A DNA stretch of 64,000 bases from Nepenthes gracilis (lineage: Eukaryota; Streptophyta; Magnoliopsida; Caryophyllales; Nepenthaceae), in the NCBI GenBank assembly GCA_033239525.1, contig BSYO01000022.1:14022923-14086922 (forward strand), in the 5' to 3' direction. The translations under genes and the position numbers were made by a program. The first letter of the stretch is position 1, and each line of letters opens with the position of its first letter. Positions 29,497-60,772 of this stretch are shown piece after piece. The notes below the pieces were generated by a model. The model did no database searches, was not told the origin of the DNA, and saw only the letters and a list, made by a program, of their open reading frames with translations.

Positions 29497-30027
29497 TGTT
29501 ACGGGCATCATCGAGACATCCTCGGAAGCATCGCCACCACGTCAGCCAACTACTACCAGAAGGAGAAGTGCTCCAGCAACCCAATTACCCCTCATATTTG
29601 GAGATTACATTTAATTTAGAGATTACATCTAAATTCTGTTATACTTTCCCTACACATGCTTCCCTTTATTTTCTATTCATTCTATTTTCCCCGTTTTTCG
29701 TTTTGTTTTCCCCATTCTTGTCTGTTATGCATGTTTTTTGTTGCATGTGCATAGTGCTACTAGGCCACGAGTGGTTGCCCGACACTGTATATGTAGTCGT
29801 TCTTGGGTATTGAGAATGGGAGAGGTATTTTGTCTTTCTCGCGTCTTCTTTTCCTTCCCTGCTTTTTCTATCTCTATTTGTCCTTCTGCAACTCTGCTTC
29901 TTTGCCCCCGTCTCTCTCCCTTGATTTTCCCAGTTTCCCTTTGTTGAACTCCCCCTCTCCTGCCGTTTTCACTGTTTTTGTCTTCTTCCTTCACTTGCCG
30001 GTGCCATGCCAAACTGTGCTCGTAACA
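29497..30027 (+). repeat. 5' LTR of element B
   Basis: Starts TGTTACGGGCATCATCGAGA and ends GCTCGTAACA, giving TGTTACG/CGTAACA terminal inverted repeats. It matches 48709-48737 plus 60276-60772 along its whole length with scattered differences, so the two are an LTR pair. The T-rich second half (29820-30000) gives spurious ORFs. Confidence 0.9.
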
Positions 30028-30058
30028 TAAGTGCCTTTATTGAGACATAGCGGACGAG

Positions 30059-30892
30059 ATGGCGATTGAAGAACAAGCATTGATGGCACTCAAAGATTCC
30101 ATTGCAAGGCATGCGATGGAGGTGAAAGATGTCACCAGGAGTGCCCGACAAAATGCAAAATCCATCGCCACCATTTCATCCACCTTCGCACAATACACCT
30201 TCATCGAAATTCAACAATTCTTCGCTTGACTTGAACGACAACGTCTGTCATCCTCACATCCCCCTTTGTTACCCACACTTACATCGTTCGCAGCTCCACC
30301 AACAGTTATTTCTCAACTAGATACCCAACTTGTTCTTGATCTTCATTTACTCCAACTTGAACATCTTACCTTTGCGATGATCGTGCAACCACATGCAGCT
30401 CAAATCGCCACCATTGCTTCCACTAAGGAACACATCCAACCACCACTCAATGACATATCGTGCCGTCTGCAAATGCCCCTATTCTTCCACCTCCGTCATT
30501 GTTCACGACTCCCACCTCCAATATTTTACCCCAAACTGCTCAAACCCTATCCTTACTGTCCCATGCCTTAACTGATGATGCTGGATGCTCACATCTCCAC
30601 CGCCTACTGCCCTCTAAGTAGCCAGTACACACCCTGGCAGGACCACCGAGCCGTGAGCTTCTATTGTTGAAGCCTGTGGTGATATTGAAAGCCTTTTCAA
30701 TGGCAAAGTTGGTGGAGGAAAAGGTGGATGCCAATCGAGTAAGTTCTCATCACCTATTACTCACCACACTCTTTGATAATCATGTTTTAACATTTGCCAA
30801 ATGCCCTTCCTCAAAATTGCCAATAAAGAAAATCACACATGCTGAAATAGCCTCTCATTCAGAATGAGGCTTGTGCCTTAAGTGGGATGAAT
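30059..30892 (+). pseudogene. gag: Element B gag, first part
   Basis: A start codon at 30059 opens MAIEEQALMALKDSIARHAM, a typical N-terminus of Reina/Galadriel-like Gag, but the frame shifts within about 170 bp and again near 30600. The capsid core seems largely deleted: soon after the proline-rich stretch comes LEAFSMAKL-like sequence (here LKAFSMAKLVEEKV), then KLPIKKITHAEIASHSE, a stop, and GLCLKWDE, the first half of a CCHC knuckle, where element C is inserted. The knuckle's second half is at 43299. Confidence 0.8.
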
Positions 30893-32993
30893 TGTGACGA
30901 ACCACATTTTTCAACCGAAATTTGTTAGAGTTTCGGCTGTAAAATGACCATCAAACTAATACAAATCTGTACAAAATTCCTGTGTAACACAAATATACAT
31001 CCACAAATCATAACACAGGATCCAAAAGCCACAACATAACACATGACACAATCGTCGTAACACTGGTTACGATATCAGCTCAGATAATATGCCACTAGGT
31101 GCCTATACAAACTATAAAAACCTGCGGAAACATATTTATATCCATCAAATATAGCAAAAATTAGCTACATGTATATCATCACATACAACTACATCAATAT
31201 ATAATCCATCTCAAAATATACAAAATGCCCCACAAAAGGGTATGAAATCTCAACAACTAAGTCCTCAAAAGTATCATCCTAGTCTTCAGCCTAGCCAACT
31301 TCTAATCTTTACTCCACCTCATTAGGTATGAGAGCATGCTCATCTGAAGGAAGAAAAAATAGTAAGGAGTGAGCCAAATACTCAGTAAGGCACACTATAA
31401 ATGAGGACAATAAACAATATATTCAAAATAAAGGGAGGGAATAAGAGCAGATTATGAATGCATAAATATGAAATATGAATAAATACATTTTTAGAACACA
31501 TTTATCTTTCTCATTTTATTTTTGATCTTTTTAGGTTCTAAAATATGTAAAAATTTTATTATTTTTGCGGACCAGGGCCAGTAGGCCTTTCCAACTAACG
31601 GTGCAGTTGAACAAAGAAAGGAATGTATTTACTTCCACACATTCTAAGGCACAAACCCACACAATTCAAAAACTCCGTGGTGAGTGGTATACCTTTAGCT
31701 CGATATACTGGACTATAACACATGTGCCACCATATCCCCCTGTGGCCCACAGGCAATCCTTGTACTTTCACAGTAATATCTTAAGGTGTGTCAGAAAATA
31801 CTACCATCTGAAATACAAATATTTAGTCTAATTTCATATTTACTTATCCTTAAGGAAATTCCATATTCATTCTTAACACTTTGTTCTCACTCTAGGTGAA
31901 CAATTCATCAAGTATAACATATCATGAAATTTCCTCCTTATACTCTTCATAATTGTATAATTCTTATGAGTTTAAATCTCCACATGAGTTAAATTCCATG
32001 CATAATGGACAAAAAGTACGAAAAAAAATAGAAATCCGTACCACCATGAGCTAAGCATAACTTTAGAGCTTTCGGAAAATAAATTCTTTCACAAATGCAT
32101 ATAATGTAATTTTCAAAGTATATACAAGATAACATAAATAATATACTTGTGAATAAATATCCCGATTCATGTCCAATAATATTTTTGATTTACATAAAAT
32201 TAACATATATAAACTATATGTGAATAAATACTAAATAATCAAATACCGACGTCCATAAAGCTAGGGTTTTAAATTCCTGGCCAAATCATATATAAATTAC
32301 AAATAAAATGGATAAAATTGAAGGGGCACGGGCTAGGGTTTCGTGAGATAAAATACCACATAAATTTTATATATCGAATATAAAATCAAAATATTTACAT
32401 GCTCAATGCATGGATATTATAACGATAAAAGTATGGATGGGTATCGGAACAAAAAAACTTAAAAAGATTGGGATAAAAAGTGAAAAGAGATGAAGAAAAG
32501 TATATAAGTGCACTTGTTTCGACCCGATCTATAACTTCTCTAACTAGATCTAAGCTGGATTTGAATTCGGAAGCCTTGATTTCCTCCTTCTTTTTCTTCT
32601 CCTTCGTGTTCTCTCTCTCTCCTCTTTCTCTGGACCGTTGCAAAATAATGTGTGAAAAATCCTGATGTATTTTTACAATTACACTGGAGCTTGAGTGCCA
32701 GTTAAGCGCTGGTCGAGTGCCAAGGCTACCAAAGGGCTGCGCTTACGCGCTCACTGATCACTCATCGAGAGAACGGTTTTGCTAAATGCGCATCGGGCAT
32801 GCTCAAGCGTGCCTCAGGCACGGCTATTCTGCCAAATGCGCCCTGGGCACACCTCAGGCACCACTCAGGCTCCGGGCCTCCCGACTCCTCTTTTTACTTC
32901 CAATGTTAATTTACCGCATACACTTACCCTAATCTTGATTATATTAATTTAATTACTTCCTAATTAATATGCTTTTAGACCCGGAACCTCACA
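30893..32993 (-). repeat. 3' LTR of element C
   Basis: Starts TGTGACGAACC and ends GAACCTCACA. It matches 41219-43298 in length (2101 versus 2080 bp) and content, including the core block GAGTGAGCCAAATACTC (31368), the GGCCAGTAGGCC block (31569) and CCATATATTT-type AT-rich stretches. The donor site of this copy is decayed (AACAAGTGCAC near 32505). A C-rich block with GCTCG- and GGGCAC-type motifs lies at 32690-32880, upstream of the TATA position. Confidence 0.9.
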
Positions 32994-33009
32994 ACTCTCC
33001 CCCACTTAG
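32994..33009 (-). other. Polypurine tract of element C
   Basis: Minus-strand AAGTGGGGGAGAGT abuts the LTR end at 32993. It is the plus-strand DNA primer of reverse transcription and follows the NFREEIF-type polyprotein end, as in related gypsy elements. Confidence 0.85.
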
Positions 33010-33019
33010 AAAATTTCCT

Positions 33020-33810
33020 CCCTAAAATTAACAAATCCTAGAATCGAACGAATATGCATACCTTGAAATAAATGAGAATACTTGTCCTAAATCTCAACCT
33101 CTTTCTCCCACTTTGCCTTCTCGCGGGAGTGATTCTTCCACAAGATCTTCACGAGAGGGATGGTCTTCAAACGCAAAATCTGATCCTTCCAATCCAGAAT
33201 CTGAACTGGCTCCTTCGAATACGATAGATCTTCTTGGATAACCAAGGGGCCGTAATTGATGATGGATCATGGGCGTACTTCCTCAACATCAAGACGTGGA
33301 AAATATTATGCACATCGACCAAACTCGGTGGCAATACTAACCGCTAGGCCACTTTTCCAACTCTTTCCAAAATTTTGAAGGGTCCTATAAATTGCGGCTT
33401 CAATTTCTCTTTAATACCGAACCTGGAGACTCCCTTCCACGGTGATACCTTTAGGAAAACAAAGTCACTGACCTCGAATTTGAGCTCGGACCTCCTCCGG
33501 TCAGTATAACTTTTCTGCCAATTCTGAGCCATCTTTAACTTATTAAAAATCATAGTGATCTTCTCCGACGTCTCCCGAATCACATCTGGACCAAAAAGAT
33601 ATCTATCTCTTGTCTCTTCCCAATGGATCAGAGATCTGCACTTCCTACCATATAAAGTCTCAAAGGGAGCCATGCCGATACTCGCCTGAAAACTATTATT
33701 GTATGCAAATTCAGCCAATACCCGGTGATCATCCCAATTTTCCTTTAACTCCATCATAGAGGCTCTAAGCATATCTTCTAATATCTGGATAGTCCGCTCA
33801 GACTAGCTAT
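33020..33810 (-). pseudogene. Element C integrase, C-terminal part
   Basis: Continuation of the integrase after solo LTR S1. The frame 33772-33344 reads WDDHRVLAEFAYNNSFQAS, then FETLYGRKCRS, KSYTDRRRSELKFEVSDFVF and VSRFGIKEKLKPQFIGPF, the standard end of the integrase core and its C-terminal domain. Further on, in broken frames, come PPSLVDVHNIFHV and LRKY, a region typical of chromovirus integrase ends, and NFREEIF just before the polypurine tract. Several stops are present. Confidence 0.85.
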
Positions 33811-34439
33811 CCGTCTATGATGACCTGAGCTCGAATTTTCGAAACCGACCCGGACCGTCATGATGAAAATCTCGAATCATCTAAAATCATCAATTATACA
33901 TCATCAATGAACCCAACATCATTAAAAATATCATCAATAAACCTCATAAATACACAATTAATTAAATATCCATAATAGTAATAATAAATAACTTCAATAA
34001 ATGACATCAATGTCTAAAATATCAATCCTCATAAAAAATCTAATAAAAGTCAAATTGTAACTGAAGTAATAAAAATCTTAACTTTTTATCCTAGAAGCCT
34101 CGATCCCCGAGATTACCTCTGCCTGGAGTCTACGCAGCGATCTCTTCTATCCTGATATCAACCTGTCTACTTTGGAGCTAATAAAATATAAGAGTGAGCC
34201 GAATGCCCAACAAATAAATATAATCAACAATAGAGGATATAATTAAGCATCCCGGACAATAACATAATGAATAATATCAATAATAGCAGGTAATATATCA
34301 ACCAATGTCTGAGACTCATTAATATGTTGTGTCCACGACCCAAAGGCCACGTGAACGGCTAAGTATCAAGGAAGCAACATAGATTCCGTCGAACCCGGTC
34401 ATCAGTTCCATACGAGGTCACAACTGGATGAATGACAGG

Positions 34440-35075
34440 AGTCTCCATGGACCTTATTCTACTATAGTGAACCAAAGGCCGCGTATTTATGCCCTCGACG
34501 GCTGGGTGAGTCTCACGAGGTTACCTGGTGTCCATGGTATCCCCACTACCCCTACAGTCCTCCCAGAGGCTGTATCCGTAGTATGCTCATACCATCTCCG
34601 ATACCCCTCACAAATGATATCCCAGATATCATTCTCTACGATGGTCACTAGGTTATAATCATCCCTCTCGACTAACTGTACGAGATAACAAGAATCTGAT
34701 TATCAGCTCAATCTGGGGTCACTATTGTACGAGATAACAAGAATCTCCTTGGACCTTATTCTACCATAGTGAACCAAAGGCCGCGTATTTATGCCCTGAT
34801 GGCTGGGTGAGTACCACGAGGTTACCTGGTATCCATGGTATCCCCACTACCCCTACAGTTTTTCCGAAGGCTGTACCTGTAGCATACCATGGTATCCCCA
34901 CTACCCCTACAGTTTTTCCAGAGACTGTACCTGTAGCATACAATGGTATCCCCACTACCCCTACAGTTTTTTCGGAGGCTGTACCTGTAGCATGCTCATA
35001 CCATCTCTGATACCCCTCGCCGAATGATATCCCAGATATCATTTTCTACGATGGTTACTAGGTTATAAGTATCCC
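34440..35075. repeat. Tandem repeats in S1
   Basis: A ~300 bp unit beginning near GGACCTTATTCTACTATAGT occurs twice (about 34450 and 34755). Inside the second copy a ~58 bp subunit with CATGGTATCCCCACTACCCC, TACAGT and GAGGCTGTACCTGTAGCAT repeats three times (34834-35000). ORFs here (34761-35042 minus) are repeat artefacts. Confidence 0.85.
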
Positions 35076-35459
35076 TCCGTAATATGAGCGACCTCAACCT
35101 CCGGAATGGAATCAGTATTGGAAAATTATAGACTACTCTATGATCCTATGAACTCCTATATGCCCGGTTACTGTAGAGTCTTCGTACATTCTCCTTTACT
35201 TATCCATAATGAAATCAGTATCAGAAAGGTGTAGACCACACTAAGGTTCTGTAGCCTTCTATTTGACTCGATACCTTAGTGTTTTTATATGCCATCCTCA
35301 ACTTAGCCATAGAGTGACAATAAATGTACCCATACCACCAAAGTTAATGTAAAGAATAATTTATCGGAATTTATCAATGAGATACAGGAATAATCAGTTA
35401 ACAGACTATTATTATTCTTACCCATGCACACAATATAAACATATACAGCAAACACATAA

Positions 35460-36190
35460 ATAATTTATGTATATATATACATATTCTAGCTATGTATATA
35501 AATATATTTATATTTATATCAACATAAACACACACCACACGCACACACACTGCCCCACACTCACCGTGCACAGTGCACACACTCACCGCGCACAGTGTAC
35601 ACAGCAACACGTATACATACATAAATATTTACATGTACTTCCACATATATGTGTATATATATATATATATATATACCAACTTATATGCATATATATATTT
35701 ATTTACATATATATGTTTATTTATTCATTTATTTGCACACGTATACGTATACACCTCCAACACTCCATTCACTGCGCACCCACATACACAGCAGCTCACA
35801 CTGCTTCCCTCACGCACGCACATGGCGCACACTCAGTGCCCGTCAAGGCCACACAGCCTAGTAGCATGCCCACTACCACTAAGCCCACGCACAACACTAC
35901 CCACGACTGCACACCCTGTCCACAAGCAGCACACACGCTGCAGTCTACACACACACAGCATGCATACTCACAACACATAGCAGCCCATGCTGCTCATGCT
36001 TAATCCCACACACGACGCATGCACACACAGAGCACTATACACACATCCAGTAGCACACTGCACCCTTATACTCACAGCAACACGCAGCTGCCCACAAGCC
36101 ACATGTATAAATATATGTATAAATACATACATAAATGTTCACATATACATCCACATATCAAATACATATGCACATGTACACGCATAGTGC
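35460..36190. repeat. Microsatellite-rich zone in S1 (CA and TA/ATAC runs)
   Basis: Repeated short runs of TATATA, CACACA, ATACAT and CAGCACAC fill about 700 bp, including (TA)n near 35653-35673. Low-complexity ORFs on both strands follow from this and are not genes. Confidence 0.85.
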
Positions 36191-37143
36191 CAATATCCCA
36201 ATATCAGCACTTACAACCGAGCCCCTATTTTCCTCCAAATTTCTCACTTTACCACAAAATTGGGGCCGGTAGGCACAAAATTACTACATGAAGGAATATA
36301 ATCAACATCTAAGAATGAGGAGGAAATAATTTACTTGCAAAACAATTGGGCTAAGTTCTCCTTCCACCCTAGGTCATTTAACTTGGTTGGAATATGCAAA
36401 ATAGTGCATCGTGCTCTGTTTTACCACGGTTATGTCGACTCCCATAAATCAGTGTATACCACATGCAAGATGGATACTACATAACTCCATTGCACAAATG
36501 ACACAACCCTATGCCGGTCAATTCCTCACCGAGCCTGAGCTCTTGATTCGGTTTCCCCAAAATTGTAACCCTCGACTTTCAACAGTTTCCCACCAAATCA
36601 GGGCACAAAATCAGAGTATTTGCATTAACAAGAATAAAAGGAGAATTAATTTTGTGATGGAGAAACCTTACTGGCAAAATGGAGGATTACTTGCCTTGAT
36701 TTGGAGATCGGCGGTGACGGCTTCGGCTTCGTGCTCCACTTACGATGGTGGCGGTATGAATCGACGATGGCGGCAACACCAATCTACGACAGCGACTTTG
36801 ACTGCATATACGTCGGCATCATCCCAACACACGATGGCAATTAGCAGCGGCAACGACGAGGAACAAGGACGACGGCATCAGCTCACGGCTAGTGTAACGA
36901 TGGCGCCCTTCTCCTTCCCCCACCATCTCCTTAAATAATGAAGGGGTCGATTTAGGTTTCCATTTGGGATGCCAATTTCCTTCCTCCTTCGTCAGCAATC
37001 TGCCACCGCGCCTCCCTCTCTCTCTCTTCTTTCCTTCTTCTTCTCTTCCTTCCTTTCTTCTTTCTTTCCTTTCTTTCTTCTTTCTTTCTTTTTCTTTTCC
37101 TTCTATTCCTTTTTCTTTTCTTTCTCTAGTTATTTGTTTCTCT

Positions 37144-37144
37144 C

Positions 37145-37217
<73 letters not shown>
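37144..37217. repeat. (TTA)n microsatellite in S1
   Basis: An uninterrupted run of about 24 TTA/ATT units, preceded by a long TTC/TTTC-rich stretch (37010-37135). The poly-isoleucine and poly-tyrosine ORFs across it are not coding. Confidence 0.95.
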
Positions 37218-37602
37218 TTTAATTAATTAATTATCTAATTATAATAACACTTAAAATTTTAATATTAATTTTTAATATTTTAACCTGTGAAATTTAATTT
37301 CATAATTATCTTTTAAAAATTTCTAAAATACTAATATTCATATAATTTAAATATATAATAGTTTACTTGATTAATTAAACCTATAATTCAATCAAGTACA
37401 CTAATTATTATGACTAAATTTAAGGGTTGAAACATCTAAGCTCAAATTATTAATTCAAATTAATAGTTTGAACATTTAAACCTAATCACAAGATTTAATA
37501 CTTAAGATATTTACTAAAATAGTCGAATGATTATTAAAATTAATTAAATAATGTATTTTTATAAAATTAAAAATTTAAAAATATTCAAGATATTACACCG
37601 TC

Positions 37603-39530
37603 TGAGGGTGATATGCCGTGTTAAACTTCAAATTCGTCCTTAATTCTCTGTGCAAATGTTTCCAAAACTTAGAGACGAAATGTGGATCACGATCGAACAC
37701 AGTAGATGCTGGAACTCCATGCAATCTAACAATCTTATTGATGTACAACTGTGCCAGATGATCACAAGAATAAGTCATTTAATTGGCTAAGAAATGAGCT
37801 GATTTTGTTAGCTGATCTATAATGACCTAAATTGTATCGTGATTCCTCGGGGTCCTAGGCAAACCTGAGACAAAATCCAAAGATATGTCTTCCCATTTTC
37901 AACTCGGAATGGGTAAGGGCTGCAACAATCTCAAGGGCTTCCTCCTCTCAGCCTTCAGCTACTAACAAACAAGATATTAGCTAACAAAAATAACTATCTC
38001 CCTTCAAATGTTCCTCCACCAGAATATCTTCTTCAGGTCTTGTTACATCTTATTAATCCCAGGGTGGATAGTGTATTTGATCCGATAAGCCTCCTTCGTG
38101 ATTTCCTCTTTCGGATCCTTATCATCAAGTATGCACAAGCGCTCCCGGAATCTCAAGCCTCCACCAGCACGGACACTGAAATCTAACCCAGAATCTTGAC
38201 TAAGATCTCCAATAATAATCCTTAAGAAACTCGATCCACTTTCGCTACCTCATATTTAGCTATTTTTGCAAAAATAAATACTTGAGGCTATTGTGATTAG
38301 AATACACTAAAAATTTCTCGTCGTACAAATAATGCCTCCAAATTTTCAACGCGAACACAACGGCGGCTAGCTCCAAATTATGGGTTGGATAGTTCTTCTC
38401 ATGAACTTTTAGCTGTCGAGACCCATAAGCGATCACTTTACCATTCTACATCAAAACACATCCGAGGCCAACCTTAGAAGTATCACAATTCACCTTGAAA
38501 TCACCAGGACCATCGGGAATAGTCAAGATAGGTGCCAAAGTCAAACGATCATTCAACTCTTGGAAACTTTGGTCACATTCCGCTGTCCATTCAAACTTCA
38601 CTTCCTTCTCCACAATGTGGCGATAATATCTAGCCATACCCCAAAAACTACGAACCTTCATCATGGTCGTTGGTCGAATCCAACCGATAATAGCTTTAAT
38701 CTTCTTTGGGTCTACCGAGACACCAATACTAGAAATGACGTGGCCTAAGAACACCACCTCATCGAGCCAAAACTTGCACTTCTTCAACTTCGCATACAAC
38801 TTATGCTCGCTAAGGGTTTGAAGAATGACCCCACAGATGCTCCTTATGATCAATACTGCTCTTCGAATAAATTAGGATGTCATTAATAAAAATCACAACA
38901 AATTTATCCAAATAGGCTTGAAAAACCAAATTCATTAAGTCTATAAAAACCACAGGAGTATTCGTCAATCCGAATGGCATTACAAGAAACTCATAATGAC
39001 CATACCTCTTCTGGAAAGCCGTTTTTGCCACATCCTCCAGCCTAATCCGAAGCTGATGATATCCCGACTGAAGATCAATCTTATAGAACACGCGGGTCCC
39101 TTGCAATTGATCGAAAAGATCATCAATTCTCAGCAACGGATACTTATTTTTGATCATGATCTTATTTAATTCATGATAGACTACACACAACCTCAAAGTC
39201 CAATCCTTCTTCTTCATGAATAGGACCGGAGCTCCCCATGGTGAAATACTTGGTCTAATAAAACCTAAATCTAGAATGTCCTGCAATTGCTACATCAATT
39301 CTTTCAACTCAACAGAAGCCATATGATAGGATGCCTTTGAGATAGGTGCCGATCTCGACATGAGATCAATCCCAAACTTGATCTCCTGGTGTGGCGGCAA
39401 AGTAGATAATTTATTCAAAAATACATCCGCAAACTCGCATACCATCGAAATTGTCTTCGCTGATAGCTCTCGGCTCTGCACCACACTGGTAAATGCCAAA
39501 TAAGGTTCACATCCACTGTTTAACAAATGA
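37603..39530 (-). pseudogene. pol: Element C pol: RT, RNase H and first part of integrase
   Basis: Minus-strand remnants in order: a PHQEIKFGIDLMSR-like pre-RT segment (39400), RT ([55 protein letters not shown]), the palm motif at about 38870, RNase H (VNCDTSKVGLGCVLM to about 38280) and the integrase core (TVFDRDPHFVSKFWK, FNTAYHPQT). The palm motif reads FINDILIYS where the family has a catalytic aspartate pair, so one Asp is Asn. Stops and frameshifts are frequent, especially at 37780-38440. Not functional. Confidence 0.9.
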
Positions 39531-39825
39531 CGAGCTTACAGTGCCAAAAATAAAGTTGACAACTCAACCCGTCGAATTCCTTGAATGTAAAAGGGTTCAC
39601 ATTCCGAAATTGCAAAATTAACTCTCTTATGAAAACAATCAATAGTTACATGATTCTTTGCCAATCAATCCATACCCAGAATAACATTAGAATCATACAT
39701 CTCTAGAAGAATCAAATCAACAACTTAGGACAACCCATTCACCTAAATCAAACATCCAAGGTACGAGACATCAATAACAACAGAAGATCTCATGGACATC
39801 GATACAATCAAAGAATAATCAAGGG

Positions 39826-40113
39826 TCACAGGAATGATGCAAAATGAGAAGCAAATTGAGGTGAAATGATAGAATGGGTGGATCTAGAATTAAAAAGTAG
39901 TGTACTAGAGGTGCCACAGATAGAAAGAATATCTTCCTCCACATCATTAGATGCCTTTGCTTTACTAGCGGACACCGGAAAAGCCTTTTCTTGAACAATG
40001 GGCTTAGGGGTATGAGCCTTCATCAGATGAGGACACTCCTTGATTTTGTGCCCCACTTGGCCGCAATTAAAACACATGCCCATCATGTTATAACAGGGCT
40101 TACTTCTATGCAT
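39826..40113 (-). pseudogene. Element C zinc knuckle and protease
   Basis: One minus-strand frame holds a CCHC knuckle (CFNCGQVGHKIKEC), a linker, and the protease active-site region LLFNSRSTHSIISPQFA. The family's catalytic DSG reads NSR here: the Asp is Asn and Gly is Arg, both explained by G-to-A changes on the coding strand. The domain ends at a stop at 39826 and continues degraded to about 39530. Confidence 0.85.
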
Positions 40114-40975: not shown

Positions 40976-40996
40976 TATTGGCTACAAATGTCTATT

Positions 40997-43345: not shown

Positions 43346-43429
43346 ATATGATGGGTGAGGAACACGACTCTGTTCCGGTTGTATCCCTAAACTCAGGGCC
43401 CCAAATTTAAGTGCAATTGGAGTTTGTAT

Positions 43430-47129: not shown

Positions 47130-47134
47130 ACTAC

Positions 47135-48690: not shown

Positions 48691-48737
48691 TTTTGATGGA
48701 GATGGTAATATTACCAGCATCATCGAGACATCCTCGG

Positions 48738-50565: not shown

Positions 50566-50688
50566 TTGCAAGCTTGGCGCCTAAATTTTCCTTCCGTTTT
50601 TCGTTTCAAATCAGTTACGACTCCTTCGTCTTCCTCATTCTCGTTTCGCAGACAAACCTCTGAGGAAAACCCTAGAACCTTTCCGATC

Positions 50689-52475
50689 ATGGCTTCCGTC
50701 GCGGAAATCTCATCTGTCTTGAGGGAGAGTGATATTAAGGCCTTGTGCGTCGAATTCAACATTCCGAAGGAGATGGCCTGGAGGGTTCCGGGAGCAGATG
50801 AAGTAGCCCCTCACCCACCGAAAGGCTACATCACCGTCTATGAGGCCCACCTGAGGAGCGGGCTCCGGCTGCCCTTTCCGGAGGAGCTGGAGTCGATCGT
50901 AGTGGCCCTAGGGGTTCCCATCGCCCAGCTTCATGCCAACGCGGTGAGGTATATTTGTACTTTATGCATTTTTGCCCGGAAGCTTGAACAGAGGTTTAGG
51001 ATGTCCGGCCTTAAGGTCATATTTAAGGTGACCCAGGGGGCAGAGTGGATCTCACTCAGCCCCCGTGCGGGGATCAAGATAAGCAAAGCTATTTACGACT
51101 CCTTGAAGAACTGGAAGGACCGGTTCTTCTTCGTGAAGGTGGGAGAGGAATGCCCCATCGCGAAAGACCGGGGCGAGGTCCCAGAAGTGCACCTTGGCGT
51201 GCCGACTGCGGCGGAGACAGCCGCGTATGCATGGCTGACCGCGGCCATACAGAAGAATCCCGATGAATTTAGAAGGGACTTCTTGGTTTCCCGGGAGGAA
51301 ACCGAGAAGTTTGAATGGGGCCCACCACCACCGTGCGAAGCCACACCCGCGATTCTGCAATGCCTAAGCCTCGACGACTCGAGGAAGTTGCTCATCCGCC
51401 CGATGTCTTCGGAGGAAGCCGCTGCGAGGGCGACCATGCCCTCATCTTCCTCCTCTCGATTGACCTTGTGGCTGCGGGATTTTTGCGGGGTCCTGGCAAC
51501 ACTTCCGAGCGGAGAAATCCGTTGAGGACAGGCCGGCGGAGGCCGGCGGAGTTATTTTGGCCCAACTGCTGCGAAGGTGGTTCGTGCACCGCCGGGATGG
51601 GATCGTGGAGGAGCCAGCTCGCGACGCGCCTGAGGGCTCGCGGGTTTATACTGTGGAGCCGCCGATGAGGGCTGATCCTCCAGCAGCTGCCCCAAGGGCA
51701 GCCAGGAAGAAGACACCCGCCGCGAGTACTCCAGTGACTGCAGTGGAGGAGCCCGCCGCTGCCGTTGAGGACGATGAGTCTTTCGATCGTATTTTGGATG
51801 AGGTAGCGGTATGTTCAGCGCGAGGGGATGTTCCTGGCTCGCCACCTCCGGTTCCGCCGTTGGCTGGTCCTGGCCTGGAGTCCAGGCCTGCGAGGTCCTA
51901 TTGGAAGACCTACGAGGTATAACTTCTGCAGCTGCTTCCTTATATTTTTTCCTTATGTTTATAAGCTCACGCTTTGCTCTGGTCCTGTGCAGCCAAGAAG
52001 AGTGGCCTCAGTTGTCTCCCGGGAAATAGAACAGCGCGATCGCATTATCGCGGAGCGGGAGGCTGAGATAGCCTAGCTAGATGCCAAGCTGGCCGCCTCA
52101 GGAGGAGAGCTACGCGAGCAGACAGCCGCTCTTGAGGCTGTCGTGGTGGACTTAGAGGCAGAGATCGCTGCACTGAAGGCGGAGGTCGCCCGATCAAAGG
52201 AAGAGGAAGATCGGCTTAAGACGAACAACAAACGCCTTTCGGATAGAGTCGCCGTCGTAGAGAGCGAGTTGGACACTCGGATGAGCCTCCACGAGGTCGG
52301 GGGCGCACTGCACGCCCGGCTGTTGGAGGGGCTCAATATTGGACGTCGCGTCGCGCGGTTGGTTGTTCCTGACTTCCCTGTGGAGCTTATAAATCAAAGG
52401 AACCGCGCGGCGCTGCGCAAGGAAGACTTGCAGGGAGAGCCCCGAGACAGCCAGGGTGGTCCGCCAGCCTCGTAG
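50689..52475 (+). pseudogene. Antisense ORF of element T (gypsy-type transposon-protein domain + coiled coil)
   Basis: Opposite in strand to T's gag-pol. From the ATG at 50689 (MASVAEISSVLRESDIKALC) the frame is open to 51525 and contains GYITVYEAHLRSGLRLPFPE, IAQLHANAVRYICTLC and SPRAGIKISKAIYDSLKNWK, like the plant domain called putative gypsy-type transposon (PF04195). An upstream in-frame Met at 50566 seems less likely. A frameshift near 51460-51525 moves to the frame 51557-51922, then a 76 bp intron (51917-51992, GT...TGTGCAG) joins it in frame to a long coiled coil (REIEQRDRIIAEREAEIA to about 52360), interrupted by one TAG at 52073. Such antisense ORFs are known in Tat elements (Retand, RIRE2, Grande); function unknown. 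Confidence 0.75.
51917..51992 (+). other. Probable intron in the antisense ORF of T
   Basis: GAG-GTATAACTTC at the start, a T-rich middle (TTATATTTTTTCC) and CTCTGGTCCTGTGCAG at the end. Removing 76 bases joins ...YWKTYE to PRRVASVVSREIEQ in the same frame, and without splicing the frame stops at once. Length and base composition fit plant introns. Confidence 0.75.
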
Positions 52476-53472
52476 CCTTTGGACTCTCTTTTATTTATTT
52501 TTTTTTATTTTTATTTTTTTTTTGACCGTATGTAAATTGCACCATACTTTGTGAGAATAAAATGGATGATCTTTTAGTTTGGTGCCCATTGCCTTTTACC
52601 GCTTTGTGTTTATTGCTTGCGTGAGTTGCTGTTTTGGGCGGCCAAGTTGGTTGGTCAGCACTTGTTGCCTGGTTGCCTGAGGAGCTTAGCCCCCAGGCTT
52701 GGCAGGTGGTCGCATTAACCACCCCCGCGATGCTGCCCAAGCGGGAACTTGGGCGGTTAGTGTTAGAGAAGGAGCGCTTCCCGTTATTGTTTGATTACGC
52801 CATCCCTTCATAGAGAAAGTTGGTGCGTGGGGTAGCCAACATGGTTGGCTAGCTGCTTAAGGAGTGAGATCCTCAAGTCAGGCAGGCGGTTGTAAGAACC
52901 AGCCTGGTGGCGCCGTTCAAGTGAAGACTTGGGCTGCCAATGTTGGAGAAGAAATGCTTCTCCCTTCGACCGTCGTTGGTAGACGTTCTTTGCTCCCGAA
53001 AGAGGTCGTCGCGTGTGCCATTCTTGCCCCCTAAGGTTTTTAGACCGCTATGGGCCACTTGGATGACCAAGGTTTAGTACGACCGCTATTGGGCCGCTCG
53101 GATGACCGAGGTTTCGGACCGCTCATGGGCCACTTGGATGACCAAGGTTTAAGACCGCTCATGGGCCACCTGGATGACCAGGGTTTCAGACCGCTCGTGG
53201 GCCACCTAGATGACTAGGGTTTAAGACCGCTATGGGCCACCTGGATGACCAGGGTTTCAGACCACTTTTTGGGCCACCTAGATGACTAGGGTTTAACGAG
53301 AGGGTGAAGACCCTCCCGACTTAGGGGCAGTCTAGGTCGGATGGATACCTGGAAGGCAAACACAATTCATAGGCCCTAAAATTCTACATGCTAAGTAAAC
53401 TCTCCTTTTTCCGAAGTAAAGACAAGCACACGAATGAATGCACAGGATCGAGTTAGGGCGTACCTGGGTTCC
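52476..53472. repeat. T spacer between antisense ORF and integrase, with ~37 bp tandem repeats
   Basis: After the antisense ORF's stop comes a T-rich run (52490-52522), then a region with no credible gene. At about 53041-53300 seven imperfect units of the form GACCGCTATGGGCCACCTGG followed by ATGACCAGGGTTT repeat. In T's own direction this is the 3' untranslated part just after the integrase stop at 53473. Confidence 0.85.
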
Positions 53473-54760
53473 CTATTGGAAGTAGCGCTTCAGGTGGGTT
53501 GCGTTCCACGTTCGTGGGACCAACTTCCCGTCCTGGTTCCGGAGCTTGTACGCCCCATTGCGCAGGACAGCGGAGACAAGAAAAGGTCCCTCCCAGTTGG
53601 GAGAGAGCTTGTTCCGGCCGGCCAGCTTGCCTGTGGCTTCGATGCTTCGCAGGACCAAGTCCCCAACGTTAAACTGCCGGGCCTTCACTTTCTTATTGTA
53701 GTACCGGGCAACTCGGTGTTGGTATGCTGCTGTCCGTACTCTAGCCGCGTCACGGGCTTCCTCCAACAAGTCCAAGTGCTCCCTGATTTTCTGGGAGTTT
53801 GTCTGTGGGTCGAAGGACTCCACCCTGAGACTTGGGAGCCCGATTTCGACCGGGATTATCGCTTCAGTCCCGTAACAGAGGCTGAAGGGTGTCTCGCGTG
53901 TTGATTCTTTCGGGGTTGTGCGATAAGACCATAGGACGGCTGGGAGCTCGTCAGCCCAGGAGCCCCCGGCGTCCTCCAATCTAGTTTTTAACCCATGGAG
54001 CAGCGTACGGTTTGTGACCTCCACCTGCCCGTTGGCCTGGGGGTATGCCACCGAATTGTGGACCAGCTTGATTCCAAGGCTGGTACAATACTTGGTGAAG
54101 CGTTTCCCCGAAAACTGGGTCCCGTTGTCGGTCACCACGACCTCAGGGACGCCGTATCTGCAGACAATGCCCTGGCGAAGGAATTCCAGAGCATTGTGTT
54201 CTGTGATTTTTGCGAGCGGGGCAGCCTCGACCCATTTAGTGAAGTAGTCGATGCCCGCTATGATGAATTTCCTTTGTCCCGCGGTAACGGGAAACGGGCC
54301 GAGAATGTCAAGCCCCCATTGCATGAAGGGCCACGGGGCCTGAAGGGACTTCAGGTCCGCGGACGGCTGGTGGTGGAGGTTGCCATGAAGCTGGCAGCTT
54401 TCACATTTCTTTACAAACTCAAGCGCGTCCTTTTTCATTGAGGGCCGAGTAGCCCCGCCGCATGACTTTGAAGGCCGGGTTCTTCCCGCCTCGTGCGATC
54501 CACGGATCCCAAGGTGAACTTCGCCCGGTAGCGTGTCCCGCCTCCTCGGGAGATAGACAGCGGAGATACGGAGTTGAGTATCCGCGGCGATATAGCCGCC
54601 CATCAACTACCGTGTACCAGCCGGCTGTCTTTTTAATCCGCTTGGCCTTTTCAGCGTCCTCCGGGAGTGATCCGTCGGCCAGGTATCTAAGGTAAGGAGT
54701 CATCCAGTTTTTCGTCTCTGAAATCTGCATGGCCTCCTGTTTCTCTATGCTAGGAGTGTT
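53473..54760 (-). pseudogene. Element T integrase
   Basis: Catalyses insertion of the element cDNA. From 54606 to 53473 a 377-codon frame stays open. The zinc-binding part is shifted or damaged (HLGIRGSHEAG, then KKCESCQLHG). The catalytic core is intact to the eye: GLDILGPFPV (first Asp), VVTDNGTQFSGK (second Asp) and ANGQVEVTNRTL (Glu). The C-terminal domain follows (VGDLVLRSIEATGKLAGRNK, WEGPFLVSAVL) and ends at THLKRYFQ. The N-terminal part between 54607 and 54760 lies in two frames, so a compensating pair of indels is likely. Confidence 0.9.
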
Positions 54761-55797
54761 CAGGACCTCCTGCATGTCCCTCGAATATTGTTCTCGGTTA
54801 CGGGCAAATTCTTTGCTCTAGCCACCCGGCTCTGCCTTCCAATTTTACTCGAGAACGTGAACCGTGTCAGCTTGTCGAAGCCCTGGATAGCCTCCTTTGC
54901 CTTTGCCAGGTACCTGGCCAAGGAAGGGTTGTTTGCCTCGAAGCCCCTATTGACCTGGTTGACGATTAACTCGGAGTCGCTGTGGACCGCCAACCTCTTG
55001 GCGGAGCACTCCTTTGCCAATCGCAAGCCAGTTAGTAGGGCTTCGTACTCAGCGACGTTGTTGGTCGCTGGGAAATCAAGTTTTAGGGAGTACTTGATCT
55101 CGTAACCATCAGGGGTCGTCAGGACCACTCCTGCCCCATTGCCACTGTCCGTGGACGATCCGTCCACGTGGAGCGCCCATTCTGGGGCCCCACCGGGCTG
55201 TTCTTTGTTTTCGTTGGGCTGTTCTTCTTGGATTGGGGTCGTGGTCTCGACGATGAAGTCAGCCAGAGCCTGTGCCTTTATGGCGGGTCTGGGCCTGAAC
55301 TCGATGTCGAACTCGCCCAATTCAATCGCCCATTTTACCAATCGCCCCGAAACGTCGGGCTTTTGGAGTATGCCTTTCAGTGGCTGGTCCGTAAGGACCA
55401 CTATGCGATGCGCCTGAAAGTATGGCCTCAATTTTCGCGCTGCGAAGATAAGGGCCAGCGCCATTTTTTCAGCGCGCGGGTAGCGAGTTTCCGGGCCGGT
55501 CAGTGTTTTGCTCACGTAGTAGACCGGTTGTTGAATATCGGACTCCTGGCGCACGAGGACGGAGCTGAGGGATGCCTCCGATACCGCCAAGTAAAGGTAC
55601 AGCTCCTCTCCGTCTTTGGGTGACGCCAACAACGGTGGGCTGGCCAGATACCGCTTCAACTCATCGAAGGCGGTCTGGCAGTCGACCGTCCATTGGAATC
55701 TGTTAGACTTCGTTCCTCTCAAGGCTTTAAAGAAGGGCTGGTATTTGTCTCCAGACTTCGCGAGGAAGCGGGACAAAGCAGCCAGCCGCCCAGTCAA
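54761..55797 (-). pseudogene. Element T RNase H and second, archaeal-type RNase H
   Basis: Degrades the RNA strand during reverse transcription. The first half reads LYLYLAVSEASLSSVLVRQE, VYYVSKTLTGPETRYP and VVLTDQPLKGIL, the gypsy RNase H, in which the first Asp position is Val (LAV). The second half reads WALHVDGSSTDSGNGAGVVL, NNVAEYEALLTGLRLA and AVHSDSELIVNQV, an additional RNase H with its D, E and D residues present. Dual RNase H domains are characteristic of the Tat lineage. A TAA at 55798-55800, in place of a probable CAA, separates this part from the RT. Confidence 0.9.
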
Positions 55798-56606
55798 TCG
55801 TTAGACGTCTTTTACGTTTCTCGGGGGTGCCATGTCAGCCAGGGCCTTAATCTTTTCTGGGTTTGCCTCGATCCCTCGCTGAGAGACGATGAAACCCAAG
55901 AACTTCCCTGAGGTTACCCCGAAGACACACTTGGCTGGATTTAACTTCATTTGGTGCTGGCGGAGTACCCCAAATGACTCCTCCAGGTCACGTACGTGGT
56001 CGCCCGTGACTCTGCTCTTGACAAGCATGTCGTCGACGTAGACCTCCATGTTGCGACCGATTTGCTTTTCGAACATCTTGTTCACTAGGCGCCCGATAAG
56101 TGGCTCCAACGTTCTTTAACCCGAAGGGCATGACCTACTATAGCAATAGGTGCCTGTCCGTCATGAACGAGGTATGCTCCTCGTCTTGGACTCATTCTCG
56201 ATCTGGTTGTAGCCGAATAAGCGTCCATGAAGCTTAGCGGCTCGTGCCTGTGTGGAGTCAACCAGGTCAATCCGTGGCAAGGAAAGCTGTCTTTTGGACA
56301 AGCCTTGTTGACGTCGGTAAAATCGACGCACATTCGCCATTTTCCGTTGCTCTTTTTAACCAGGACGACGTTCGAGAGCCAGTCCGGGTACTGGACGTCC
56401 CTAATGAAGCCTGCGTCCAGCAACTTCTTCACCTCCTCTCGGATGGCGATTAGTTTTTCGACGGAGTGGTTCCTCCGTTTCTGCCTGACCGGCTTGCGGT
56501 CTGGATCAAGGCCAAGTTTGTGGACCATCACTTCAGTTGAAATCCCAGGCATGTCCGCGGGAGTCCAGGCAAAAAGGTCTGCGTTTCTTCGTAAAGATGC
56601 GATCGG
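55798..56606 (-). pseudogene. pol: Element T reverse transcriptase
   Basis: The frame 56552 downward gives MPGISTEVMVHKLGLDPDRK, LLDAGFIRDVQYPDWLSNVV, LVKKSNGKWRMCVDFTDVNK and ACPKDSFP, the fingers and palm of a Tat-type RT. The frame breaks in the region 56290-56110. It resumes with MEPLIGRLVNKMFEKQIGRN, the intact catalytic YVDDMLVKS at about 56042-56016 and LNPAKCVFGVTSGKFLGF. TAA at 56604-56606 and TAA at 55798-55800 are in-frame stops at either end. The frameshifts make it non-functional. Confidence 0.9.
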
Positions 56607-57587
56607 TTAAATCAGCGCAGTGGGCACAGTGAGTGAGCCGCCAACTGACGCACTTGTCCGGTTCCCCAGGTCGAGTGGGACCAGATCCGTGGCTTTACCG
56701 GGCTGCGCTTGTTGCAAGGTGGACTCGTCTCGGTGATCGAGTTCTCCCGCCATGTCAGTTCTGCCGCCAGGGGCAATCTGGGCCATGTAGCAGGTACGCC
56801 CAATGACCTGATCTCCCAGAACTTCTCCGACGCCGTAGGGCGTTGGGAATTTCATTTTAAGATGTGGAATTGACGTGATTGCCCCAAACGCTGTTAGGCA
56901 CGGCCTGCCTAGTATGGCGTTGTAAACAGAGGGCAGGTCAACCACTAGGAAGGTTAGCATGCGACTTGCTGTTTTTGGGTAAGTGCCCAGGGCGACCTCC
57001 AGTTGGATTGTCCCTTGAACGGGCACTGGTTCATTGTCAAGGCCGTATAAAGGTCCTTCAGCAGGTTTTAGTTGATTTTTTCTTAGGCCTAGTCTAAAGA
57101 ACGCGTCCAAGTAAAGCAAATCTTTAGAGCTTCCATTATCGACAAAGACTCGCTTCAGCTGGTAGTCCGACGTACCATCCGAAACGAGTGCCGAGATTAC
57201 AAGGGGGTCAACATGGGGGGAGATTACATGGTTCGAGTCACAATCACTAAAGCTAATGATGTTGTCTTCTGTGCGTTGCTTCTTCCTCCCAGTTTGCTGC
57301 CCCTTGTTGTCATCCGGGCTCCTGGCAGGTCGGGTGTTGATCATGTTGACTACCCCTGCCGCAATCCTGTTTCGGGGAGGTGCTTGCTCCTGCCTTTCTT
57401 CGTCGGCCGCCCCTGAGTTCTGTCCAGGCCCCTTGACAAACCGGGTGAGGTGTCCTCTGTGGATCAAGTCCTCAATTTCCTTTTGCAGCGCTTTACAGTC
57501 TTCAGTTGAATGGCCGGCAGAGCGGTGGAAGTCACAGTACTTAGACTGATTTCCGGAGTCCTTCTTCAGCGTCTTTGGCCACTTCAA
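56607..57587 (-). pseudogene. Element T gag end (zinc knuckle-like) and protease
   Basis: A 326-codon open frame. Near its start is CDFHRSAGHSTEDC with EIEDLIHRGHLTRFV, the Tat-type CxxHxxxGHxxxxC knuckle. In the middle the protease: VFVDNGSSKDLLYLDAF (catalytic Asp present, DNGSS rather than DSG), GTIQLEVALGTYP, LTFLVVDLPSVYNAILGRP. The stop at 56604 interrupts the same frame that continues into the RT, and a frameshift separates it from the gag frame upstream at 57588-57691. Confidence 0.9.
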
Positions 57588-57691
57588 AAATTTTTCTCTC
57601 GCGGATCTGCATTAGAACATTGGAGTGCGTGTGCATCGAGGTGTGAAGGTGGTGGGCCCGTAGTCTCGTTCGGGGCCCGGTCAGTGGTTAT

Positions 57692-58933
57692 TCAGCGGGA
57701 GTGTTCCCCGCCGCTGTATTTTCTTTTCCCATCACCAGGGAACGGCCGAGGCTGATCCGCCCTCTCAGGACGTTTTGCCTCATTGGCTTCCTCCGCTGCT
57801 GCGTAGGCCCTGGTGATGGATTCCGCCTCGCGGAAAGTCTGAGGATTTTTGTGGGCAAGGTGCTTGAAAAAGTCACCGTAAGTCAGCGTTGAGATGAAGC
57901 TGCCCAACTTCATCTCCTCAGTGATCCTGGGAATCCTTCTAGCCTCAGCCACGAAGCGATCCAGGAAGCGCCGTGGGTTCTCTCCCGGTTTCTATTTTAT
58001 GTGGGAGAGGTGCCACGGCTGTTTTTCTTCCCGCCGGCTTGATGCATACTGGGCCAGGAAGAGGTCCGTGAGTTCACGGAAGCTGCTGATCGTGCCTGAA
58101 GGGAGATGGTGAAACCAGATTCTGACATCTCCCTTCAGGGTGAGTGGAAAGCAACGGCACATTGCCGAGTCCTCTAGCCCTTGTAGACTTAGATGGGTGC
58201 GAAAGTGGTCCAGGTGGTCAACCGGATCACTGCCCCCATCGTATAAGTCAAGGGACGGCATTTTGAACTTGGACGGTAGAGGACGGCTTAAGATTTCTGC
58301 AGTGAAAGGCGACCTGTCCAAGTCGATGGTGCCCTCGTCGTTCTGGAACACGCGGTTCCAGATTTGATCCACTCGTGGGTCGGCACGAGTGGCGTTGGCT
58401 GATCTCTTGGAGTTGAGGAAATTCCTCAACTCCGTCTTGTCCCCGGCGGGTTTAGCAGTCGGCCGACTGCTGCCGCCAGTGGATCTGGCAGTCCCGGAGG
58501 CTCGCTCCTGGGCCGCGTGATGGTCCTTTCCCCGAGAATATCGAGGATTTCTCCTTTCTGGGCTCTCTGTAGGAGACGTACTCCCGGAGCGTTCCGTTGG
58601 CCTGTTCTGGCCAGGAGCGCGGGAGGACGCCGGAGCTGGATCGTCCCCGGCTTTCGTAGGCCTTTTGGCCAGCTTCTTCTTCCTTTGGCCACCTTTTTTG
58701 GTGGCAGGAGCGGGAATGACGGCTGGTGGAGCCACCGGCAGTTGTTGCTCCTTCTGTGCACAGAGCAGTTGGAGCAGGCGACTGTTAGCCTGCATCTGCA
58801 CCACCAGTTGTCGAAAATAAGGCGGGGGACTCCCACCTGTGGCCCCGTTGACCAGGACATTAGCAGCATGGTCCTGGTCGGGGTTAACGATTTCTCTAGC
58901 TGGATCGCTAGCCTGTGCTCTCGTGTTCACCAT
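57692..58933 (-). pseudogene. gag: Element T gag
   Basis: Start at 58933 (MVNTRAQASDPAREIVNPDQ), a basic, low-complexity N-terminal half, then the capsid core: SKFKMPSLDLYDGGSDPVDH, FRTHLSLQGLEDSAMCRCF, LTLKGDVRIWFHHLPSGTIS and FLAQYASSRR. A single TAG at 57989-57991, in a context expecting CAG, stops the frame; the same frame continues KPGENPRRFLDRFVAEAR to 57692. Apart from this change and the later stop the gag is open. Only 80 bp separate the ATG from the LTR. Confidence 0.9.
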
Positions 58934-58993
58934 TGTAGAAGCGGGTGTGACAGAGAGTTAGTGCGGGTTTTTGTGGTAGGCTTTTTGTAAGCG

Positions 58994-59012
58994 TTTCCCA
59001 TGACGGCGCCAA
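58994..59012 (-). other. Element T primer-binding site
   Basis: Minus-strand TTGGCGCCGTCATGGGAAA directly beside the LTR start at 59013. TGGCGCCGT is the usual PBS start of Tat-lineage elements and differs from the initiator Met-tRNA site used by C, D, G and H. Confidence 0.9.
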
Positions 59013-60270
59013 TGATGCGTGCACGGATCCGACTTGACGAATTCGATTCTTCGAGGAGCCGATCCGGCCGTTCACCGAGTGCGAACCCCGCACACCACTA
59101 AAGCAAACAAGAGGTCGGCGTTCACGGCGGGAATTAATCCCACCGAAAACACTCCGACTCGAGTTAGTAAACGACCTTGATGGAAGGAACTGAAAGATAG
59201 AAAGAGCAATGAGAGAAGAGAGAAGAGTGAAGAGTGTGTAGTTCCAGGTGTCAGTAAGGAGCAGGTCCTTCCTCGTATCTGGATGGTGGGAAGGCAGAGA
59301 ACGCGTGTATCAACCCGTTCGTTGCCTTGAAGTTCGATCGTGCTTGGGAATTTGGCTGCTGGGGACCAGAGCTCGTGCAGTTCTGGGAGTTTACTCAAAG
59401 GGAAGCAGACCAATGCAGTTTGTCTTTTTAGTTCTTGAAAGAGAAGTGAAGAGTGTAAGATGCTTGGGAAGATCTCAGAAAGCTCTCCTTTCTCTGTGGG
59501 GCGTGAAGGTTCTTATACACCTCACCATGCTAGATCCTTGGGCACCAAGGTGGTCGTTGTTTGGGCCACTGCACCGCTGGTCACTATCGTGGACTGCTGG
59601 TCACGCCGGCTGCCCAGTTGCCGTGACCGGCACGTTTTTGGGTGTCGCTTGCCATGCTTGGCTCCTCCCTCTGCGGGGAGTGGGTGGCCACCTGCAGACG
59701 GAAGCAGGTGGCGTTGGTGTTGTGCCAGCCATGCCCCTGGTGGCTAGCCTTTCCGCCTCTATTGCGTGTCTCCGTGAACGCATTAAATGCGTTGCGGTTC
59801 CCGTGCCCTTCTCCATCGTGGGTCTGTTGCCTAGAACTCTTGGGCTGGGCTGAACGTGCGCATTGGTAGCCTTCATTTGGACTATGGGCCTGAAGCGAGT
59901 CAGGCCCATTTCTGTAGAAGGGCCAATTTTAGGGCCCAGTACGTAAGAAGCGGACGGTCAACGTCTGAGTTGACCCTCAGGGTGTCGGCCGCCCTCGTGG
60001 AGAGCGGCGGGCGACCATCTGATGGGCCGTGGGCCATAATGGAACAGGCCCATCACTGTTGCAAACCTCTGGAGGCCAAACAAACCGTCAACCCCGAGTT
60101 GACCGTTTTTGAGCTGGTTAGCCGCTGGGCGGTCAATGCCAACGTTGACCGTCGCCCTCCCGCCTTTCGGTTTCGCCTATCTCCTTAGTGGGCCGTCAGG
60201 AACGTTGACTGGCCTTCCTGGGCTTCCGTTGACTTCTCCTTGGGCCAGCCCATTTTTGGTGTACCCATCA
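59013..60270 (-). repeat. 5' LTR of element T
   Basis: Starts TGATGCGTGCACGG and ends GTGTACCCATCA. It is 1258 bp versus 1273 bp for the other copy. It is the promoter LTR of T. No unique ORF is credible. Confidence 0.95.
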
Positions 60271-60772
60271 CTCGGAAACATCGCCGCTGCATTAACTGAC
60301 AACTACCATAAGGAGAAGTGCTCAGGCAACCCAGTCACCCATTATATTTGGAGATTATATTTAATTTAGAGATTGCACTTGAATTCTGTTATACTTTCCT
60401 ATACATGCTTCCCTTTATTTTCTATTGGTTCTATTTTCCTTGTATTCTGTTTTGTTTTCCCCCTTCCCGTCTGTTATGCTTGTTTTCTGTTGCATGTGCA
60501 TAGTGCAACTGGGCCATGGGTGGCTGTCCAACACTGTATTTGTAGCTATTCTTGGGTATTGAGAATGGGACAGATATTTTGTCCTTCTCACATCTTATTT
60601 TTCTTCCCTGCTTTTTTCTCTCTTTGTTTTGTCCTTCTGCAACTCTGCCTCTCAGTCTCTCTCTCTCTCTATTTTTCCTTTTTCCTTTGCTGAACTCCCC
60701 CTCCCTTGTCATCTTCTCAGTTTTCATCTTCTTCTTTTGCTTGCTGGTCCGTTGCTGACAGTGCTCGTAACA

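What the first reader, a model, noticed from the sequence alone, without database searches (positions are those of the whole stretch)
29497..60772. Small gypsy element B has captured pieces of at least four host genes in one internal region
Seen: an element with paired LTRs, perfect TTGAA duplication and a gag remnant, but no pol; between gag and 3' LTR are intronless, same-strand pieces resembling raffinose synthase (43430-43545), a CTL/PNS1 transporter (47261-47822), KMS1/VMP1 (47823-48042) and ankyrin protein(s) (48043-48690). Three of them run on in one frame. Known: plant retrotransposons rarely transduce host transcripts (maize Bs1 is the classic case, with pieces of several genes). Inference: template switching during reverse transcription built a chimeric gag-host protein gene, which may once have been translated as a fusion. 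A gypsy/chromovirus carrier with this gene set is not one I know of.
Basis: partly seen in the sequence, partly recalled or inferred. Interest (0 to 1): 0.92.

Follow-up and report, generated by a model that had tools for sequence, protein, structure and literature searches.

The report
Retrotransposon carrying four host gene pieces
An old, broken plant jumping gene carries pieces of four unrelated host genes, and predicted proteins from a pitcher-plant genome share its fusions, so part of the array was probably built once and then spread.

Summary
The capture claim holds. Element B (29497-60772) has 531-bp LTRs (TGTTAC..GTAACA, 83% identical), a perfect TTGAA duplication and pieces of four host genes: raffinose synthase (Pfam E 2.8e-7), a CTL/PNS1 choline-transporter-like protein, KMS1/VMP1, and one ankyrin protein in two non-adjacent pieces. 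CTL, KMS1 and the first ankyrin piece are contiguous and share a frame. The best database hit is a predicted Nepenthes gracilis protein, Nepgr_008945, with the same CTL-KMS1-ANK order and seams (E 3e-147). Three more N. gracilis predicted proteins share KMS1-ANK. Residues not seen in any compared natural homologue, and a tree (98.9/100), indicate one origin of KMS1-ANK in the Nepenthes lineage. CTL was probably added later, at a shared Trp-Thr-Ala, so this looks like layered capture followed by amplification. Corrections: insert C ends at 43298; about 100 bp may be a pol (chromodomain) tail; a gag-host fusion protein is not supported. Not shown: LTRs around the other copies, parental introns, expression. 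It resembles maize Bs1, with more genes and a partly readable history.

The parts
29492..29496 (+). left target-site duplication TTGAA of B
   Evidence: sequence
29497..30027 (+). 5' LTR of B, TGTTAC..GTAACA
   Evidence: 83.1% identity to the 3' LTR over 504 aligned bases, K2P 0.196
30028..30892 (+). gag remnant up to the first half of a degenerate zinc knuckle (GLCLKWDE)
   Evidence: translation; motif recalled, no gag-family Pfam match
30893..43298 (-). nested LTR element C (coded on - strand), not part of B
   Evidence: LTR pair (K2P about 0.19); ends TGTGA..TCACA and TGAAT/TGAAC by eye; RT, RNase H and Tf2-1 SH3 Pfam hits on - strand
43304..43421 (+). rest of gag zinc knuckle (FTPGYQCK) and following residues
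   Evidence: translation; motif recalled
43422..43565 (+). raffinose synthase piece (Pfam core 43434-43544)
   Evidence: PF05691 E 2.8e-7, 29.2 bits against cut-off 20
43704..47129 (+). nested insert S2, 3.4 kb, TGTCAC..CTTACA, read as a solo LTR; not part of B
   Evidence: ACTAC duplication 43699-43703 / 47130-47134; solo-LTR reading is by eye
47135..47240 (+). possible tail of pol (chromodomain end, ..FNLEDQII)
   Evidence: by eye against a recalled motif; no Pfam match
47236..47826 (+). CTL/PNS1 piece, residues 108-302 (to 306 at the seam) of Nepgr_020851
47821..48045 (+). KMS1/VMP1 piece, about residues 139-213 of Nepgr_021845
48052..48291 (+). ankyrin piece 1, residues 155-234 of Nepgr_008670
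48298..48631 (+). ankyrin piece 2, residues 539-650 of the same protein, with a one-base shift near 48400
48685..48708 (+). stretch before the 3' LTR with a purine-rich part (possible polypurine tract)
   Evidence: by eye
48709..60772 (+). 3' LTR of B, interrupted by T
48738..60270 (-). nested gypsy element T, not part of B
   Evidence: CTCGG duplications, LTR K2P 0.032; gag, RNase H, integrase Pfam hits on - strand
60773..60777 (+). right target-site duplication TTGAA of B
   Evidence: sequence

Best explanation
B is an old, nearly pol-less, non-autonomous LTR retrotransposon, probably of the gypsy/chromovirus kind, in a Nepenthes or close-relative genome. An ancestor picked up pieces of host messenger RNAs. 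A KMS1-ANK fusion, with an internal ankyrin deletion, arose once in the Nepenthes lineage and was copied to several places. In the branch leading to this copy and Nepgr_008945 a CTL piece was joined upstream at a shared Trp-Thr-Ala, and B also gained a raffinose-synthase piece between gag and the possible pol remnant. The likely mechanism (inferred) is packaging of host mRNA into virus-like particles made by an autonomous relative, followed by template switching of reverse transcriptase at short matches. After insertion B decayed and was hit by C, S2 and T. Shown: LTRs, duplication, four gene pieces, shared seams and shared changed residues. Inferred: RNA intermediate, order of capture, and that the other copies lie in B-type elements.
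For: LTRs and duplication. Gene pieces. Nepgr_008945 matches the window across CTL, KMS1 and ankyrin in one alignment, 334 residues at 75%. Nepgr_001617, Nepgr_029664 and Nepgr_031549 share KMS1-ANK. Changed residues: KMS1 K to E in 5 of 5 copies and L to Q in 4 of 4 readable, absent from 114 natural KMS1 compared; ankyrin A to V in 5 of 5, absent from 6 compared; CTL 5 sites shared by window and Nepgr_008945, absent from 119 compared. Tree: chimeras together 98.9/100, with the N. gracilis parent 96.7/94; CTL 92.4/97 and 90.6/94. Seams: WTA in both parents at CTL/KMS1; window, Nepgr_001617 and Nepgr_029664 share the seam of the ankyrin 235-538 deletion. Stops: 6 seen, 4.0 +/- 1.9 expected from decay since insertion, so the frame could have been open when B inserted.
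Against: No flanking DNA of the other copies was available, so their LTRs are unseen. Branching among chimeras is unresolved: the window groups with Nepgr_008945 by CTL (92.4/97) and weakly by KMS1 (75.2/74) but not by ankyrin or the combined data. Exclusive ankyrin residues: window with Nepgr_008945 two, window with Nepgr_031549 two, Nepgr_008945 with Nepgr_031549 one. Identity of the window copy to the parents (CTL 144/176, KMS1 57/68, ankyrin 53/75) is as high as to Nepgr_008945 (140/176, 54/68, 51/75). In the ankyrin-only search Nepgr_031549 was the only chimera among the 7 hits; the other three were not listed. gag and pol-tail readings have no database support. Removal of introns is unproven.
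Confidence: 0.78

Rival explanations
1. All four pieces were captured in one reverse-transcription event that built a gag-host fusion gene.
For: All pieces are on the same strand inside one element, and three share a frame.
Against: Nepgr_001617 and Nepgr_029664 carry KMS1-ANK with KMS1 residues that lie upstream of the CTL seam, so the fusion without CTL looks older; gag and raffinose-synthase frames differ now.
Confidence: 0.1
2. The chimera was made by something else (LINE-type chimeric retrocopy, Helitron or Pack-MULE) and then became part of B by insertion.
For: LINE template jumps are proposed to have made tripartite chimeric pseudogenes in a fungus (PMC2104539, listing and start of abstract only); Helitrons and other DNA transposons capture gene fragments more often in maize (PMC2774510, passages).
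Against: No poly-A run or second duplication was seen by eye around the pieces; they sit between gag/pol remnants and the 3' LTR, in element orientation.
Confidence: 0.1
3. The chimeras are a working host gene family, and B is only one carrier of it.
For: Nepgr_008945 is annotated as a 336-residue protein.
Against: The window copy has 6 stops and a frame shift; the annotated copies differ greatly outside the core; annotation is not evidence of expression.
Confidence: 0.05
4. Artefact: assembly error in the window or gene models that join unrelated exons.
For: Parts of Nepgr_031549 and Nepgr_029664 may be joined by gene prediction.
Against: The window seams are contiguous DNA, and a second predicted protein has the same two seams.
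Confidence: 0.02

Closest known systems
Bs1 of maize
   Same: LTR element that carries pieces of several host genes (three: proton ATPase, xylan endohydrolase, beta-1,3-glucanase; PMC13317346 section 4); that it lacks a working pol is recalled
   Different: four different genes here; predicted proteins of other loci share part of the array, so an order of capture can be proposed; gypsy/chromovirus-like gag (motif level)
Single-gene captures by plant LTR retrotransposons (maize, rice, sorghum)
   Same: host gene fragments inside LTR elements (PMC2774510 passages; PMC3726574 passages)
   Different: in maize no case was found, under the conditions used, among 425 gene-bearing intact elements of one holding more than one standard nuclear gene
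LINE-made tripartite chimeric pseudogenes of Magnaporthe
   Same: different transcripts fused by proposed template jumps (PMC2104539, listing and start of abstract)
   Different: made during LINE reverse transcription, not inside an LTR element

Membership tests
LTR retrotransposon | paired direct terminal repeats with TG..CA ends | tested here: met
   the 3' copy's first bases read TATTACC, not TGTTACG
LTR retrotransposon | short duplication of the target site | tested here: met
   TTGAA on both sides
LTR retrotransposon | primer binding site after the 5' LTR and polypurine tract before the 3' LTR | tested here: inconclusive
   by eye only: no clear tRNA match after 30027; partly purine-rich stretch before 48709
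Ty3/gypsy chromovirus | gag zinc knuckle | tested here: inconclusive
   degenerate motif on the two sides of C; no gag-family Pfam match
Ty3/gypsy chromovirus | integrase chromodomain | tested here: inconclusive
   47135-47240 by recalled motif; no Pfam match
Ty3/gypsy chromovirus | RT before integrase, RT phylogeny | not testable with these tools
   no RT or integrase match in the + strand frames of the B pieces scanned
Bs1-type transducing element | pieces of two or more host genes between the LTRs | tested here: met
Bs1-type transducing element | pieces are cDNA copies without introns | tested here: inconclusive
   contiguous alignments; protein isoforms hint at a KMS1 intron only upstream of the captured part
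Bs1-type transducing element | chimeric gene transcribed and translated | not testable with these tools
   no expression data

The most novel reading that the evidence does not exclude
A serial gene-collecting retrotransposon lineage in pitcher plants: an ancestral KMS1-ANK module has been carried through repeated retrotransposition and has gained different upstream partners in different branches (CTL plus raffinose synthase here, possibly an alkaline/neutral invertase in Nepgr_031549), with copies recombining, and at least one copy (Nepgr_008945) still able to encode a membrane-ankyrin fusion protein.
Probability: 0.35. Interest if true: 0.8.

Novelty: new variant of a known kind. Interest (0 to 1): 0.6.

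Why it matters
Capture of several genes by one plant LTR element is known to me mainly from Bs1, and a maize survey found no such case among 425 gene-bearing elements. Here five copies share seams and changed residues, so the steps by which such an element grew, and whether fused genes stay open or are used, can be tested directly in two published Nepenthes genomes.

Tried and rejected
Considered and dropped: a fifth gene at 43557-43703 (weak by-eye likeness to another part of raffinose synthase; no Pfam match up to E 10); C running to 43414 with AATTG duplications (replaced by 43298 after the LTR alignment); intron positions from protein isoforms (output cut: only a KMS1 intron upstream of the captured part is hinted at); chromodomain or gag motif words in print (no paper found); B-derived sequence in the unexplained ends of the other chimeras (nothing convincing; one 43-residue match of Nepgr_001617 to the antisense of the B LTR, E 2.6e-4 in a tiny search without composition correction, is unexplained and I read it as chance); PDB (60 of 181 matches shown, ankyrin-repeat proteins, mostly designed; two chains of a raffinose synthase family protein, E 0.23, not significant). 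Copies of the B gag and host pieces elsewhere in the window: no match below E 0.1 besides themselves. Paper searches: the rows shown list no report of gene capture by a Nepenthes retrotransposon (6 of 6 shown; 24: 7 of 7; 40: 15 of 15; 43: 15 of 82; 46: 4 of 4; 50: 5 of 22; 61: 5 of 5; 62: 10 of 93; 65: 10 of 18), so absence in print is not proven. The Bs1 paper itself was not held.
Full report
Anatomy. B has LTRs at 29497-30027 and 48709-60772 and the duplication TTGAA on both sides. The LTRs are 83.1% identical over 504 aligned bases, K2P 0.196, so the insertion is old. Three later insertions split it. C (30893-43298, K2P about 0.19, coded on the minus strand) lies inside the gag zinc knuckle. 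S2 (43704-47129) has ACTAC duplications. T (48738-60270, K2P 0.032) lies in the 3' LTR and has CTCGG duplications. C's ends and duplications are my reading of the printed sequence.

What the interior holds. Before C there is a degenerate gag ending GLCLKWDE; after C it goes on FTPGYQCK. This is a chromovirus-type knuckle by recalled motif; Pfam gave no gag family. Next comes a raffinose-synthase piece, PF05691 positions 185-221, E 2.8e-7. After S2 about 100 bases read like the end of a chromodomain (recalled motif, no Pfam match). Then follow CTL, KMS1 and ankyrin pieces up to a partly purine-rich stretch and the 3' LTR.

Parents. A search of a database of 5.8 billion proteins with the read-through frame scored 7,995 candidates and gave 822 hits at E <= 0.01, 120 of them listed. 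The second best is the N. gracilis CTL protein Nepgr_020851. Searches with the later parts gave, among others, the N. gracilis KMS1 protein Nepgr_021845 (741 hits, 120 listed) and, as best hit, the N. gracilis ankyrin protein Nepgr_008670 (7 hits). Window alignments: CTL residues 108-302 with one two-codon gap, KMS1 from residue 139, ankyrin 155-234 and 539-650. The three parents are on contigs of different lengths, so they are probably unlinked. No Nepenthes raffinose synthase was looked up.

Other copies. The best hit, Nepgr_008945 (336 residues), aligns with the window from 47284 to 48279 in one piece at 75% and has the same CTL/KMS1 and KMS1/ankyrin seams. Nepgr_001617, Nepgr_029664 and Nepgr_031549 share KMS1-ANK; in Nepgr_031549 the KMS1 part is short (39 residues at 72%). 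The first two share with the window the seam left by loss of ankyrin residues 235-538. Nepgr_029664 and Nepgr_031549 keep an ankyrin stretch (around FRGFATT..) that the window and Nepgr_008945 have lost between two LEA words; Nepgr_001617 lacks it too, with another border. Nepgr_031549 begins with an alkaline/neutral invertase piece (PF12899, E 3.4e-39), though gene prediction may have joined it. In the ankyrin-only search only Nepgr_031549 of the four was among the 7 hits.

One origin. Compared with 114 natural KMS1 proteins, 6 ankyrin proteins and 119 CTL proteins, there are 12, 22 and 5 sites at which two or more chimeras share a residue that no natural protein compared has (113 of 115 KMS1 proteins taken from the list could be placed, plus the parent). 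Three of the 22 ankyrin sites lie at the deletion seam and are not ordinary substitutions, and many of the others join only Nepgr_001617 and Nepgr_029664. Five KMS1 and six ankyrin sites join three or more copies; two are shared by all five (KMS1 K to E, ankyrin A to V). In the KMS1-ANK tree the chimeras form one group (98.9/100), and the N. gracilis parent is their sister (96.7/94), with Ancistrocladus, Drosera, Dionaea and Rhamnella outside; several chimera rows have long gaps. CTL gives 92.4/97 for window with Nepgr_008945 and 90.6/94 for these with the parent. The capture thus falls after the split from the relatives sampled, and the window most likely comes from Nepenthes (inference). Within the chimeras the trees disagree. 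The window is nearest Nepgr_008945 by CTL; by ankyrin it shares two exclusive residues with Nepgr_008945 and two with Nepgr_031549. Recombination between copies is one explanation, noise another.

Order. Nepgr_001617 and Nepgr_029664 read VLWWTAL, as the KMS1 parent does; the CTL-bearing copies have the CTL reading up to the shared WTA and KMS1 after it. A copy with CTL could not easily regain VLWW, so the fusion without CTL looks older. This rests on four residues in two gene models; Nepgr_031549 lacks this part and says nothing. The place of raffinose synthase in the order is unknown.

Frame and decay. CTL, KMS1, ankyrin 1 and the start of ankyrin 2 share a frame. Six stops in 461 codons compare with 4.0 +/- 1.9 expected if an open frame decayed at the LTR-derived rate (P of six or more 0.19). 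KMS1 and ankyrin 1 have none where 1.5 are expected (P 0.22). So the frame may have been open at insertion, and there is no sign of selection since. A gag-host fusion is not supported.

Literature. A 2026 review (PMC13317346, outline and section 4) gives Bs1 with three genes; in that section it is the only plant retrotransposon given with more than one. The maize survey (PMC2774510, passages) found no case, under its conditions, among 425 gene-bearing intact LTR elements of one holding more than one standard nuclear gene. [quoted passage not shown] the passages shown do not speak of several genes in one element. [quoted passage not shown] The N. mirabilis genome is about 65% transposable elements, 35.5% gypsy (PMC12244726, passages).

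Limits. The window's own genome could not be searched. No Nepenthes DNA outside the window was available, so LTRs of other copies, introns, dN/dS and expression remain open.

Noticed in passing
7600-20400: Related stretches repeated three to four times with spacings of about 2.9 and 5.2 kb.
   Followed up: no
25373-26037: Repeat with 63-bp spacing, 8 registers, overlapping three open frames.
   Followed up: no
21735-23426: LINE-type reverse transcriptase remnant with zf-RVT domain, E 2.7e-20.
   Followed up: partly
28800-29491 and 60778-61300: B seems to have inserted into the gag of another gypsy element, by eye; Pfam gave no match at E 0.01 on the pieces tried, 29208-29496 and 60774-61345.
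   Followed up: partly
N. gracilis Nepgr_031549 (P0122): Predicted protein joins an alkaline/neutral invertase piece to the KMS1-ANK core; possibly another captured gene or a gene-model fusion.
   Followed up: partly
N. gracilis Nepgr_001617 and Nepgr_029664 (P0121, P0133): Both have an unexplained insertion beginning GHQ after KMS1 residues FTIK, and N-terminal parts of unknown source.
   Followed up: partly
43566-43703: About 140 bases of B between the raffinose-synthase piece and S2 have no identified source.
   Followed up: partly
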